From positions 1 through 64,000 of the forward strand of contig NZ_AKVN02000001.1 in the NCBI RefSeq assembly GCF_000271485.2: a DNA stretch of 64,000 bases, read 5' to 3'. A model generated the notes under the pieces. It ran no database searches. It was given only the letters and a program-made list of their open reading frames with translations, and was not told the origin of the DNA. A program made the position numbers and the translations under genes. Positions 6,281 to 55,788 of the stretch are shown piece by piece. Every line of letters begins with the position of its first letter. The first letter of the stretch is position 1. Source of the stretch: Pelosinus fermentans DSM 17108 (GTDB lineage: Bacteria; Bacillota; Negativicutes; DSM-13327).

Positions 6281-6326
6281 CCATAGTGAATAGAGACGGC
6301 TGGGCAGCCGTCTCTATTCACTATGG
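6281..6326. repeat. perfect 22-bp inverted repeat, 2-nt centre
   Basis: The arms CCATAGTGAATAGAGACGGC-TG (6281-6302) and their exact complement (6305-6326) would make a near-continuous hairpin or cruciform. It lies in the 325-bp gap between the pspC-like gene and the ftsW-like gene. A T-run follows on the plus strand only, while both flanking genes are on the minus strand. The rest of the gap (6327-6545) is AT-rich with no gene seen. Confidence 0.75.
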
Positions 6327-7865: not shown

Positions 7866-8876
7866 ATGGAAATCCAACCCTATCAACTCGTTGTAATTGA
7901 TGATACGACTCATGCTTTACTGCTCGTTGATGGTCAACAAGGAGAAATCATCGCTGAAATGTCCTATCCGCCAGAATACACCCCAACCGAGCTGCTGCTA
8001 TCATCTGACCAGAGTAAAGTCTATATGCCCGTAGTAAAAACAAATGGCAAAGGCGCACTCTTCGTAGGAAATTTAGAACAAAAATCTGTCTACCGCTTAC
8101 CGATAGAGCTGCCTCCTCCTACACAATTTACACTCGCGCCAAAAGGCAATTGTGCCTATATAGCAGATCCAAATGGCGGATTATATTCTCTGACCATACC
8201 GAGTATGTCTCTAACAGCCTGGGGAAATCCAGCAGAAGCTGCCTGTGTTGGTCTCGCTGCTGATCATGATGCGATCTACAGCGTCTGGGAGCATGACAAT
8301 CAAGGTACGCTGGCAGTTTTTAGCCCTGCCGGACAATTACTCCAGGAATACTCCTTACCGGGAATTCCCACGAATGTAATTCTTCATGGAGATGAACATA
8401 TTCTAGTACCTTTTACTAGTACAACATTTACCCTGGAAGGCATTATGATTTTCACAATCATAAAGGCAACGGAAACAACTCCTGCATCCATGACATCGCA
8501 AAGCTGCTTATACCCCAAGAATAAAACCTCATGTCCTTCCTATCCTTCCCACATTGCAGCTTGTCCTAATGAGCAAACTGCCTATGTTGTCAATGAAGAA
8601 AGTGCCTCTATTACAGTGATTGACCTTACCACAGCATCTATTTCCCGCCTCATTGAGCTGAATCGTTCTATATCCTGCCTACATATTGTACCTGGCAGTC
8701 AGTTAGCGATCGCTACCAGCCATATTTTTGCTGACCTTAGCATGATTGATTTAGCGAATGGCCGCCTGTTATCTGTTACAGATACAAAGCGTGAATTGTT
8801 GGGCTATATCGCGATTGTACCACATCTTCCTGCGGATCCCGCTACTATCCAGTTAACGAATAAAGACTTGGCATAA
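7866..8876 (+). CDS. YncE-like beta-propeller protein
   Basis: 336 residues, ATG preceded by GAGG. The sequence is made of repeated ~40-residue beta modules such as LVVIDDTTHALLLVDGQQGE, CAYIADPNGGLYSLTIPSM and TAYVVNEESASITVIDLTTA, the latter typical of YncE/YVTN-type beta-propellers. No signal peptide is visible, so it is probably cytoplasmic, unlike many secreted YncE proteins. The ligand is unknown; propellers of this type often act as scaffolds or bind small molecules or DNA. It is divergent from the ftsW-like gene and convergent with the DUF2935 gene. Its last codons form one arm of the shared terminator. Confidence 0.7.
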   Translation: MEIQPYQLVVIDDTTHALLLVDGQQGEIIAEMSYPPEYTPTELLLSSDQSKVYMPVVKTNGKGALFVGNLEQKSVYRLPIELPPPTQFTLAPKGNCAYIADPNGGLYSLTIPSMSLTAWGNPAEAACVGLAADHDAIYSVWEHDNQGTLAVFSPAGQLLQEYSLPGIPTNVILHGDEHILVPFTSTTFTLEGIMIFTIIKATETTPASMTSQSCLYPKNKTSCPSYPSHIAACPNEQTAYVVNEESASITVIDLTTASISRLIELNRSISCLHIVPGSQLAIATSHIFADLSMIDLANGRLLSVTDTKRELLGYIAIVPHLPADPATIQLTNKDLA

Positions 8877-8898
8877 CGCCAAGTCTTTATTTGTTAAC
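8852..8898. terminator. bidirectional terminator overlapping a stop codon
   Basis: The 21-nt arms (8852-8872 and 8878-8898, core AATAAAGACTTGGC/GCCAAGTCTTTATT) differ by one base. The left arm lies within the end of the beta-propeller CDS. The repeat serves convergent genes ending at 8876 and 8908. Confidence 0.85.
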
Positions 8899-8907
8899 TA
8901 TAAGTAT

Positions 8908-23708: not shown

Positions 23709-23746
23709 TACGATCACAGAACCTACCTTTAGGTCAGGTATTGCTC

Positions 23747-23794
23747 AAAAAACTCCTATAAAAATTCGTACACGAATTTTTATAGGAGTTTTTT
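23747..23794. terminator. strong terminator, perfect 23-bp stem
   Basis: The arms 23747-23769 and 23772-23794 (core AACTCCTATAAAAATTCG and complement) pair exactly and have A-rich and T-rich outer ends. It lies after the 35-aa gene. Confidence 0.85.
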
Positions 23795-23930
23795 GCAATC
23801 TTACCGGTATGCTAGTTCTTATCCATGATACAATTGATTACTTCTATATTATATATCGTAGAAATCTTACATATCATAAATAATGAGGATCAAACTAGTA
23901 ATGACATATTCCATATCGGAAAAGAAGGGA

Positions 23931-24629: not shown

Positions 24630-26753
24630 ATGCTGAGATATTTATTGAGAATTCTACTTCGCTTACTCTTTAAAGCAAAAGTAATCGGCTTTAAGGAGAT
24701 GCGCTTTGACGGTCCTACGATTGTACTACCCAATCATGTATCTTTTTTAGATGCAGTATTCTTATATGCTTATTTGCCCAGTACTATTTGCTACGTAATT
24801 AATACAGATATTGCAGAAAAGCTGCGCTTTTATCTCCAATTTATTAATCATATTAAAATTGATCCTTTAAACCCTTACTCTTTAAAGAAAATCCTGGCCG
24901 TATTAAAAGCAGGAAAGCCTTTAGTCATCTTTCCTGAAGGACGTATTACCCGTACAGGAAGTTTAATGAAGATCTATAGCGGCATCGGATTTATCGCCTT
25001 TCGGACCAATGCAGCAATTTATCCGGTGATCTTCTCAGGGTTAGAGTATTCCAAATTCTCACGAATTCAGGATAAAGTACGCTCAAAATGGTTCCCAGAA
25101 GTATTGATGTATGCTGACAAAGTCATTCATCTGGAATCCGGCGGGAGTAAAAGCATCCGACTGCAGAAACGGGAAATTGGTGACAAAATTCGTACAATTT
25201 TGGAAAATACCATGTTCAAAGCTAAAGAATATACGCAGATTGAAATCAATTTATTTAATGAATTATTGCTGGCAGGCAAGACTCACGGCATGAATAAGAT
25301 GATGGCAGAGGATAGCAGCGGAAAGATTACCTATCGTAAAACGATTATCAGCAGCTATGTATTGGCAAGTGCATTTCGTACAGCTCTTGCATCAGACGAA
25401 AGAGTTGGAGTTTTATTACCCAATTCGATCGGTCATGTCGTTACACTGTTTGCCTTATGTTACGCAAATAAAACGCCTGCAATTCTAAACTTTAGCGCAG
25501 GTATACAAAACAATTTAGACTGTGGAGAAACAGCGGGAATCAAAACCATACTTACCTCTCGTACCTTTGTGGAAAAAGCTAATTTTCAATCCTATGTCAG
25601 TCAATTGGCTGCTAAATTTACTATCCTTTATCTCGAGGATTTGAAAAGTACCCTATCAGGTACTGATAAACTATCAGGCTTGTTCAGCTACTTTGTAAGA
25701 AAAAAAGCATCTCCCATTGGCAATAGAGAGATCATACTCTTTACCAGCGGCAGTGAAAGCAAGCCCAAAGGGGTTGTATTGGCCCATTCCAGTATCCGGG
25801 CTAACATTCATCAGATTTCTTGCGTAATTGATTATACCCACCGAGATAAAATGCTGAATGCGCTGCCCATGTTTCACTCTTTTGGCCTGACGGCAGGAAC
25901 GCTGCTGCCCATTATGGAAGGAATGGAAGTATTCTTGTATCCCAGTCCCCTCCACTATAAAATTATTCCTGAAATTGCCTATGACCGAAATGTTACTATC
26001 TTATTAGGAACGCCGACTTTTCTGATGGGATATGGAAGATATGCTCATAACTATGACTTTTATAATGTACGATTTGTTTTGGCCGGCGGCGAAAAATTAA
26101 AAGATGATGTGCGCAATCTGTGGAATGAAAAGTTTGGCATACGTATTTTTGAAGGCTACGGAACCACAGAAATGTCCCCAGTGCTTAGTTTCAATACGCC
26201 TATGTTTAATCGCCGCGGAACTGTCGGTAAAATTCTTCCAGGCATTGAATGGCGATTGGAAGCCGTAGAAGGCATCGAAGAAGGTGGAAACCTCTTCGTA
26301 AAAGGACCGAATGCCATGAAAGGCTACCTATTGCATGGCAAAGGCTTTGTACCTTCAGAAGAATGGTATAATTGCGGCGATGTCGTTGCCATTGATAAGG
26401 AAGGTTTTATAACCATAAAATCACGCTTAAAACGCTTCGCGAAAATTTCCGGCGAAATGATTAGCTTGGATGCTGTTGAAAAAGTTGCCGAAAGCTGCTT
26501 TGCTACTGATAAAAATGCAGCAATCAATATTTCAGATACAAAAAAAGGTGAAAAGATCATTTTGTACACACTCCATAAAGATGCAACTAAACAGCTGCTG
26601 CGGGAATACATCAGTCAGAGCGGACAAAGCATGCTCGTTATGCCAACCGCATTGCGAGTCGTCGATACCTTACCCTTGCTGGGAAGCGGCAAGATTGACT
26701 ATGTAGCCCTAAAAGAAATAGCCGCAAAGGAGCTGGAAAACGGTGCGTCTTAA
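24630..26753 (+). CDS. aas: bifunctional acyltransferase / acyl-ACP synthetase (Aas type)
   Basis: 707 residues, ATG after GGGAGC. Residues ~1-190 are a PlsC-type acyltransferase with the NHVSFLDA (HX4D) and FPEGRITRTG motifs. Residues ~205-700 are an AMP-forming acyl-adenylating domain with the P-loop FTSGSESKPKGVVLAHSS (~370), GYGTTEMSP (~510) and CGDVVAIDKEGFITIKSR (~583). The order and length match E. coli Aas, which reacylates lysophosphatidylethanolamine at the inner membrane using acyl-ACP it makes itself. It overlaps lplT by 11 nt, indicating translational coupling. The pair supports a phospholipid-repair role in a two-membrane cell. Confidence 0.9.
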   Translation: MLRYLLRILLRLLFKAKVIGFKEMRFDGPTIVLPNHVSFLDAVFLYAYLPSTICYVINTDIAEKLRFYLQFINHIKIDPLNPYSLKKILAVLKAGKPLVIFPEGRITRTGSLMKIYSGIGFIAFRTNAAIYPVIFSGLEYSKFSRIQDKVRSKWFPEVLMYADKVIHLESGGSKSIRLQKREIGDKIRTILENTMFKAKEYTQIEINLFNELLLAGKTHGMNKMMAEDSSGKITYRKTIISSYVLASAFRTALASDERVGVLLPNSIGHVVTLFALCYANKTPAILNFSAGIQNNLDCGETAGIKTILTSRTFVEKANFQSYVSQLAAKFTILYLEDLKSTLSGTDKLSGLFSYFVRKKASPIGNREIILFTSGSESKPKGVVLAHSSIRANIHQISCVIDYTHRDKMLNALPMFHSFGLTAGTLLPIMEGMEVFLYPSPLHYKIIPEIAYDRNVTILLGTPTFLMGYGRYAHNYDFYNVRFVLAGGEKLKDDVRNLWNEKFGIRIFEGYGTTEMSPVLSFNTPMFNRRGTVGKILPGIEWRLEAVEGIEEGGNLFVKGPNAMKGYLLHGKGFVPSEEWYNCGDVVAIDKEGFITIKSRLKRFAKISGEMISLDAVEKVAESCFATDKNAAINISDTKKGEKIILYTLHKDATKQLLREYISQSGQSMLVMPTALRVVDTLPLLGSGKIDYVALKEIAAKELENGAS

Positions 26754-27918
26754 GCTTTCGCCCCTCAACGCCTTATTCTTAGCTCAATTTATATCTGCCT
26801 TTGTTGATAACATGATCTTATTCATTGCCTTGGGAATTATCCATAGAGACGGCTATCCTGGCTATTATCTGCCTCTCGTACAAAGCACTTTTTTATTATC
26901 TTATATTGTTTTATCTCCCTGGGTTGGCAGGTTTGCGGATAAGAAAGCAAAATCTCAAGTATTAATGGTGGGCAATGTCATAAAGACATTGGGAATACTC
27001 CTTCTCCTTGCAAAATGCGATCCCGCATTGAGCTACGGCGTGGTAGGTATCGGTGCTGTCATTTATAGTCCCGCGAAATATGGTATCCTGCCCTTTCTGG
27101 CAAGAGGAGAGGATGCCCTCCTGCGGGCAAACTCCAGCTTAGAAAGCTATACTATAGTAGCCATTCTTACAGGCTCTGTTGCAGGGGGGTATTTATCCGA
27201 TATCTCCATTGTGCTGTCATTGATAACCTGTATCGCGCTTTATCTACTATCCATTGGCGTAAATACACTCATACCAAAAGATCCCGGCAACAGAAGCATT
27301 CAATATCGTAACGCGATTACCGAATTTGCTGGCGATGCAATAGCCTTGTTTCGTGATAAACAAAGCCATTTTTCCCTGATTGGTACCGGCTCATTCTGGA
27401 TGGCATCAGCGGTCTTACGGATGATTATCTTTGCATGGGTGCCCCTTATCCTTGGCATTCGCAGCGGGATAAATATTAGTATGATTATTGCCGTTACCGG
27501 CATTGGCATAGCCATAGGAGCAGTAATTACCCCTTATCTCGTTACCGTGAAAGAGTATCAGCGCACTGCATGGTATGGTTTGGGTATGGGACTTTGCATT
27601 CTAGCATTCTTATGGGTTACGACCTTACCCATCGCCATTATCTTTTTACTCTTAATCGGCTGTATGGGAGGCATCTTTATCGTTCCTATGAATGCGTGTC
27701 TGCAGCATGTCGGTCATCAAACCATAGGAGCAGGCAAGACTATCGCCATCCAAAATTTCGTGGAAAATAGTTTTATGTTTCTCGGGGTAGGGGCCTATAC
27801 TCTTGCTTTAAAATTAGGCGTATCCATTCATACTTCACTGGCTGCTGCCGGCATCGTCTTACTGGCTTTTGTTGCCTACTTGATTGTACTAACCTATAAA
27901 AAAGCTGATGCTGACTAA
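26743..27918 (+). CDS. lplT: lysophospholipid transporter LplT (MFS)
   Basis: 391 residues from GTG 26743, which lies inside the end of aas (AAGGAG upstream within aas). About twelve membrane segments are visible. The N terminus FLAQFISAFVDNMILFIAL, the loop SPWVGRFADKKAKSQVLMVGN and the motif IYSPAKYGILPFLA match LplT. LplT flips lysophospholipids inward so that Aas can reacylate them. The stop codon is the first base triplet of a large palindromic element, which probably terminates the operon. Confidence 0.88.
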   Translation: MRLKLSPLNALFLAQFISAFVDNMILFIALGIIHRDGYPGYYLPLVQSTFLLSYIVLSPWVGRFADKKAKSQVLMVGNVIKTLGILLLLAKCDPALSYGVVGIGAVIYSPAKYGILPFLARGEDALLRANSSLESYTIVAILTGSVAGGYLSDISIVLSLITCIALYLLSIGVNTLIPKDPGNRSIQYRNAITEFAGDAIALFRDKQSHFSLIGTGSFWMASAVLRMIIFAWVPLILGIRSGINISMIIAVTGIGIAIGAVITPYLVTVKEYQRTAWYGLGMGLCILAFLWVTTLPIAIIFLLLIGCMGGIFIVPMNACLQHVGHQTIGAGKTIAIQNFVENSFMFLGVGAYTLALKLGVSIHTSLAAAGIVLLAFVAYLIVLTYKKADAD

Positions 27919-28118
27919 AAAGATTCCCTCCGTATACTAGTACCTTATCAGCCCTAAATCAGTGAATACTGACGGTCTATTTTCCGCACCCCTTCGTTGT
28001 CGTCGGTCGGCATACTCCCGGTATGCTTCCCTCCTCCGCCTTGTGCTGCGAAAAATAGCCTCGCCATAATCCTACCGTTTTAAAGCTGACAAGGTACTAG
28101 ATACGGAGGGAATCTTTT
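27918..28118. repeat. 200-bp nested palindrome with 35-bp terminal inverted repeats
   Basis: The left end 27918-27952 (AAAAGATTCCCTCCGTAT...) and the right end 28085-28118 match as inverted repeats except for one indel and one substitution. Inside, CTATTTTCCGCA answers TGCGAAAAATAG with one mismatch, ACGGT answers ACCGT, and the centre carries GCATAC-TCCCG-GTATGC. The element fills the 320-bp gap after lplT and encodes no protein. It may be a MITE-like or structured RNA element; as a hairpin with T-run it could also terminate lplT. Confidence 0.85.
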
Positions 28119-37890: not shown

Positions 37891-37959
37891 ATTACACCTG
37901 CACATTTAATCTCGGTATGAGCAATCTCAAATGTCAGTCCCGAAAATAATGAAATTCTC

Positions 37960-38016
37960 AAGAGCAAATACTTAAAAGTGAATGCTAATGACATTCACTT
38001 TTAAGTATTTGCTCTT
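37960..38016 (-). terminator. perfect 25-bp hairpin after the MFS carrier gene
   Basis: The arms 37960-37984 and 37992-38016 (core GCAAATACTTAAAAGTGAAT) are exact complements around a 7-nt loop. It lies 24 nt downstream of the MFS stop codon. A weak T-run follows, so it may also protect the mRNA end. Confidence 0.7.
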
Positions 38017-38040
38017 GTAATGAATAGGGCGTAAAGTCGC

Positions 38041-55734: not shown

Positions 55735-55788
55735 AGCGCTTAATAAAAATGTTAAATGAGTTTAACATTTTTATTAAGCGCTATTGCT
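55735..55788 (-). terminator. terminator after eutV with overlapping hexaloop-like hairpin
   Basis: 22-bp perfect stem (arms 55735-55756 and 55761-55782, AGCGCTTAATAAAAATG core) followed by a T-run. Its 5' arm overlaps a small hairpin AGC-AATAGC-GCT (55777-55788). The loop has A at position 1 but A, not G, at position 4, so it may or may not be an EutV target. It separates eutWV from the permease. Confidence 0.75.

What the first reader, a model, noticed from the sequence alone, without database searches (positions are those of the whole stretch)
27918..28118. 200-bp nested palindrome with 35-bp terminal inverted repeats
The ends match in inverted orientation at 33 of 35 positions, and three further inner stems are nested around a central GCATAC/GTATGC hairpin. 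It starts exactly at the lplT stop codon. It could be a MITE mobilised in trans, or a structured RNA made with the lplT transcript. It contains no reading frame of note.
Basis: seen in the sequence. Interest (0 to 1): 0.6.

Follow-up and report, generated by a model that had tools for sequence, protein, structure and literature searches.

The report
Mobile hairpin element in terminator loop
A small non-coding mobile DNA element has jumped into the loop of the transcription-stop hairpin behind the lplT gene; it belongs to a family of about 160-bp folded elements, not found described in the literature that could be searched, whose core is shared by bacteria of two phyla and whose purine-rich strand appears to act as a folded single strand.

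Summary
The palindrome is real and mobile, but it is two things nested. The outer 18-bp arms (27918-27935/28101-28118) are the lplT intrinsic terminator; three sister species keep that terminator empty, with CTAG in its loop. The inner 164 bp (27937-28100, CTAG...CTAG) is an inserted element. The genome holds about 15 relatives (full-length, 49-104-bp short forms, halves). Relatives with the same length (~155-165 bp) and the same core, CTTCGTTGTCGTC...CTCCTCCGCCTTG, occur in at least 120 places in Negativicutes, Clostridia and Actinobacteria, up to ~50 copies per genome. Outer arms differ between lineages yet stay complementary. Insertions duplicate a short TA-containing target (3-bp TNA, or TA within YTAR/CTAG). 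170 of 173 lie between genes, without orientation bias. Covariation is overwhelming, and wobble pairs accumulate on the purine-rich strand only, so that strand probably works as a folded single strand. No autonomous partner sharing its ends was found; Y1 transposases were not found in two heavy carriers. Best reading: a MITE-like non-autonomous element, a new variant because of its phylum-crossing, strand-specific structured core. The mobilising enzyme is unknown.

The parts
26743..27918 (+). lplT (lysophospholipid transporter); the host gene whose terminator was hit
   Evidence: NF008397 above cut-off
27918..27935 (+). Left stem arm of the lplT intrinsic terminator (not part of the element)
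   Evidence: orthologous empty terminators in G001, G003, G007; not shared by other copies
28101..28118 (+). Right stem arm and short T-run of the lplT intrinsic terminator
27937..28100 (.). Inserted element including the CTAG at each end (empty site has one CTAG)
27940..28097 (.). Element body GTACC...GGTAC (158 bp) if the duplicated target is TA
27938..27939 (.). Left copy of the duplicated TA (within CTAG)
28098..28099 (.). Right copy of the duplicated TA (within CTAG)
27992..28004 (-). Core internal loop, one side (CTTCGTTGTCGTC on +; purine-rich on -)
28031..28043 (-). Core internal loop, other side (CTCCTCCGCCTTG on +; purine-rich on -)
28010..28026 (-). Apical hairpin GCATAC/GTATGC, covarying in relatives

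Best explanation
A non-autonomous, MITE-like mobile element has inserted at the CTAG in the loop of the lplT intrinsic terminator. Shown: it is multicopy; sister genomes have empty sites at this and other insertion points; insertion duplicates a short TA-containing target; it sits between genes; it has a conserved folded core inside lineage-specific complementary arms; and the fold is maintained for one strand, the purine-rich one (minus strand here). Inferred: it is moved in trans by a transposase that makes short staggered cuts at TA-centred sites, and the purine strand, as transient single-stranded DNA or as RNA, is a form recognised during propagation. Because the element is itself a hairpin, insertion into a terminator loop lengthens the hairpin, so lplT termination is probably kept. 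The enzyme is unknown.
For: Copies in the own genome and in relatives. Empty lplT terminators with CTAG in the loop; other empty sites. Target duplications, TTA/TTA, TAA/TAA and TGA/TGA varying together, or CTAG (25, 45). Covariation: 241 both-side changes against 77 in shuffles (81; also 39). Purine strand more stable in 51 of 51; A.C against G.U on the pyrimidine strand 188:67, slid controls 1.0-1.7, p 7e-9, with no bias among recent mutations. Intergenic in 170 of 173, no orientation bias.
Against: No autonomous partner with the same ends was found. Core-less 77-bp forms exist at several loci, which would argue against a need for the core in movement unless they arose in place; in-place deletion is indicated at one locus, where two sister species have the full element. 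Three of 9 copies in G031 have unequal 3-bp flanks. The left core 13-mer was required by the search, so its invariance is partly by construction.
Confidence: 0.85

Rival explanations
1. Ordinary MITE: a plain internal-deletion derivative of an IS5-like (TNA/YTAR target) or IS630-like (TA target) element, recognised only through its double-stranded terminal repeats; the core is a passenger.
For: Inverted ends and short TA-containing target duplications. Core-less short forms with one and the same junction at several loci.
Against: A passenger core should not be near-invariant across two phyla, covary and show strand-specific wobble (74) while the ends change. The 30 DDE_Tnp_1 loci inspected have other ends; DDE_Tnp_4 is absent from all 11 genomes searched. 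IS630 (PF13358) and DUF4096 (PF13340) were not searched.
Confidence: 0.35
2. The purine strand is a functional small RNA or structured RNA that benefits host or element (for example protein binding); mobility spreads it.
For: Strand-specific fold conservation with wobble tolerance (40, 74) and a purine-rich symmetric internal loop (39).
Against: No orientation bias to genes; no Rfam match; no promoter evident inside the element.
Confidence: 0.3
3. Single-strand transposition by a Y1 (IS200/IS605 or RAYT-type) transposase acting on the folded strand.
For: Strand-specific folding; small palindromic non-coding unit.
Against: Target duplications that vary together on both sides; Y1 not found in two heavy carriers, G031 and G033, and present in non-carriers.
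Confidence: 0.05
4. A private hairpin of the lplT terminator.
For: The outer 18 bp are indeed unique to this locus (4).
Against: Relatives at up to 98% identity elsewhere; empty orthologous terminators.
Confidence: 0.01

Closest known systems
RUP (repeat unit of pneumococcus), with BOX and SPRITE
   Same: Small, intergenic, multicopy, no coding, TA target, inverted ends; such repeats cluster and insert into one another (PMC2229807, PMC10969869)
   Different: RUP shares its ends with IS630-Spn1 and is pneumococcal; here no partner was found, and the core spans two phyla while the ends do not
YPAL / RU-2 (Yersinia palindromic sequence)
   Same: About 168 bp, palindromic, intergenic, target duplications, insertion at or next to dyad symmetries (PMC2229807)
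   Different: YPAL duplications vary from 3 to 26 bp and its inverted repeats are internal; here 2-4 bp, repeats at the ends, different sequence and host range
ERIC and Correia/NEMIS elements
   Same: MITE-like, foldable as RNA
   Different: They fold within host transcripts and have reported effects on mRNA; no orientation bias and no such link was found here
REP/RAYT system
   Same: Short intergenic imperfect palindromes
   Different: Longer here, with target duplications, and no Y1 gene found in two heavy carriers

Membership tests
MITE (non-autonomous DNA transposon) | Short (<600 bp), multicopy, without coding capacity | tested here: met
MITE (non-autonomous DNA transposon) | Terminal inverted repeats | tested here: met
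MITE (non-autonomous DNA transposon) | Target-site duplication and empty sites | tested here: met
MITE (non-autonomous DNA transposon) | Ends shared with an autonomous element | tested here: inconclusive
   Not found in the own genome (<=2 mismatches), in listed matches of six relatives (list cut) or in Sporomusa (<=3); partner may be diverged, lost or unassembled
IS5/IS4-type MITE | Ends matching a DDE_Tnp_1 or DDE_Tnp_4 element | tested here: inconclusive
   30 of ~115 DDE_Tnp_1 matches inspected, none matching; DDE_Tnp_4 absent
IS630-type MITE (as RUP) | Ends matching an IS630 element | not tested
   PF13358 was not searched (cap reached)
REP/RAYT or IS200/IS605 | Y1 transposase in the genome | tested here: not met
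   none found in carriers G031 and G033
REP/RAYT or IS200/IS605 | No target duplication | tested here: not met
   duplications that vary together on both sides
Rfam structured RNA family | Match to a known covariance model | tested here: not met
Intrinsic terminator (outer arms only) | Stem followed by a T-run at the gene end, with an orthologous counterpart | tested here: met
   (G001, G003, G004, G007)

The most novel reading that the evidence does not exclude
A superfamily of mobile elements shared by Bacillota and Actinomycetota whose mark is a folded purine-rich single strand (RNA or single-stranded DNA) with a near-invariant purine-purine internal loop, read by a still unknown mobilising factor, while the ends are free to change: a transposition route in which recognition is by an internal fold of one strand and not by the terminal repeats.
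Probability: 0.3. Interest if true: 0.85.

Novelty: new variant of a known kind. Interest (0 to 1): 0.6.

Why it matters
The bacterial MITE-like repeats in the reviews read here are tied to a species or a group of related species and are defined by their ends. Here length and an internal folded core are kept across two phyla while the ends change, and wobble statistics indicate that one strand is what is selected. That points to an unrecognised factor acting on that strand, and it gives direct tests. It also shows how a terminator loop can take an insertion with little harm: the nested hairpin just gets longer.

Tried and rejected
Private hairpin: rejected (relatives, empty sites). Outer arms as element ends: rejected (not shared by any copy; terminator in sister species). 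Autonomous partner by shared ends: none seen. Solo half copies as ends of a larger IS: rejected, single ends with no second end at a gene-sized distance. Recurrent neighbouring gene as partner: only common families. Y1 transposase: disfavoured by distribution. DDE_Tnp_4: absent. Host mRNA role by orientation: a first set gave 31:17 (p 0.06), which vanished in the larger set (47:47). Plasmid or phage carriage of the Pelosinus-type element: none; phage matches are weak and lie in annotated genes; the core does occur on Streptomyces plasmids. Rfam: nothing. Literature search by core sequence: the six papers found have unrelated titles.

Full report
What is there. Window 27918-28118 is a real nested palindrome (fold z -8.8; arms). 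It starts at the last base of the lplT stop codon (LplT by NCBIfam). A search of the own genome (5.03 Mb) with the whole stretch finds relatives of the inner part only: positions 18-183 of 201 at 93% identity and 18-186 at 88%, plus many partial ones. The outermost ~17 bases on each side are unique to this locus.

Outer arms = terminator. In four sister species the lplT end carries a simple terminator hairpin and no element. The genus is probably Pelosinus, since the closest hits with names are P. fermentans and P. propionicus. Three of the four have CTAG in the loop: G001 GCAGCCCTTCCGAATACTAGATTCGGAGGGGCTG, G007 GCAGCCCTTCGGCGTACTAGATACGCCAAAGGGCTGC, G003 GATCGAGCCCTCCGTATCTAGTATTCGGAGGGCTCGATC. 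Taking out the insert leaves GATTCCCTCCGTAT-ACTAG-ATACGGAGGGAATC in the window, the same object. So the '35-bp inverted repeat' is 18 bp of terminator stem plus ~17 bp of element end. Because the element folds on itself, the terminator stem can still form.

Inner 164 bp = mobile element. The own genome has about 15 loci: six copies of 163-166 bp, shorter forms of 104, 77, 77, 76, 52 and 49 bp, and halves. Of 31 related genomes 10 have matches, up to ~30 each; three genus mates have none. Empty sites: the copy pair at 730 kb is absent from a nearly identical locus (..GATTATCTAGAATATT..), and the 4.41-Mb copy is absent from ..AACCTAACTATG... Junctions in this type fit a duplicated TA inside YTAR. 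In other lineages the duplication is three bases and varies together on both sides (TTA/TTA, TAA/TAA, TGA/TGA), and two lineages nearly always use CTAG. Three of 9 copies in G031 differ in the middle base of the duplication, unexplained.

A family across phyla. Among the titles listed, all whose group is recognisable are Bacillota (Negativicutes, Clostridia) or Actinomycetota (Nocardioides, Planotetraspora, Phytoactinopolyspora and others). Only one contig of the viral collection matched. The core also occurs between genes on Streptomyces plasmids. Copies are numerous and near identical in some genomes (G033 46, G032 54 and G034 59 matches), so the family is or was recently active. Length is about 154-166 bp in nearly all lineages examined. 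The left 13-mer is invariant partly because the search required it; the right side was searched degenerately and is still nearly invariant.

Structure and strand. RNAalifold on 40 diverse members gives 22 pairs, 17 with compensatory changes. Both-side changes number 241 against 77 in shuffles and 43-63 when the partner is slid; 89.6% of cells are paired against 35-48% when slid. The core is a symmetric internal loop with isolated G-C pairs. The reverse (purine-rich) strand folds better in all 51 non-redundant members, mean -75.5 against -56.3 kcal/mol. Outside the core, on the pyrimidine strand, A.C mismatches outnumber G.U 188 to 67, against ratios of 1.0-1.7 in slid controls (p 7e-9), in both high- and low-GC members. 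This is expected if the purine strand is the folded one, where the same positions are G.U. Differences within families show no such bias (110:90), so selection on active elements, not a mutational skew, is the likely cause. The minus strand of the window copy is one unbranched rod of -78.8 kcal/mol, z -12. The data do not tell RNA from single-stranded DNA.

Context. Of 173 insertions, 3 fall in ORFs; orientation to co-directional genes is 47:47; insertions lie nearer the end of the upstream gene (median 45-57 bp) than the next start (116-122 bp). At least three of 92 copies (L001, L043, L115) sit in hairpin loops, a small excess over mismatched flanks. Another copy, in P. fermentans JBW45, lies at the foot of a terminator-like hairpin whose counterpart without the element is in this very window at about 8850.

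Mechanism. Target duplication and inverted ends argue for a transposase making short staggered cuts. Which one is open. No gene-sized insert between matching ends was seen. The DDE_Tnp_1 loci inspected have other ends. DDE_Tnp_4 is absent. Y1 was not found in two heavy carriers. Core-less short forms could argue against a role of the core in movement. At one locus, however, the 77-bp form lies where two sister species have the full element, so deletion in place, between TCC repeats that flank the inner hairpin, is indicated at least once. I hold the single-strand step as inferred.

Comparison. It works like RUP, YPAL or ERIC-type bacterial MITEs (PMC2229807, PMC10969869). It differs in having a core shared between phyla with lineage-specific ends, and in strand-specific conservation. 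Only the open-access library could be searched, and no paper on this core sequence was found; a description elsewhere cannot be excluded.

Noticed in passing
window 8840-8900; L066 1-240: Hairpin AGTTAACGAATAAAGACTTGGC...: P. fermentans JBW45 carries a copy of the element directly at the foot of the same hairpin (CTAG there, CCAG in the window), so the window holds an empty counterpart site.
   Followed up: partly
L002 right flank (own genome about 680491-680650; another at 4618725-4618884): A second ~160-bp palindromic repeat family, GGGCGTGTCTGG...CAGACACGCCC, with a related-looking core (ATACTTCGTT...CCTCGTC), sits directly next to a copy of this element; further copies in G004.
   Followed up: partly
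L271, L272, L276, L280-L282, L287, L129, L085 (genome G033): In this Clostridiales genome about half of the copies looked at abut, through a shared CTAG, another palindromic element starting AGCGTGTTTGAAAA, with a variant core (CTGCGTCGC...GCTCCTTG); recurrent pairing unexplained.
   Followed up: partly
L003 1504-1711 (own genome about 730147-730354): Two elements head to tail, one full-length and one of 49 bp, sharing a single CTAG.
   Followed up: yes
L292, L293, L294 (genome G031): Three-base duplications that differ between the two sides in the middle base only (TTA/TCA, TCA/TTA, TAA/TGA) around otherwise young copies.
   Followed up: no
window 37959-38017, 23746-23795, 6281-6326, 55735-55782: Perfect 22-26-bp inverted repeats with 2-7-bp loops, probably intrinsic terminators.
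   Followed up: no
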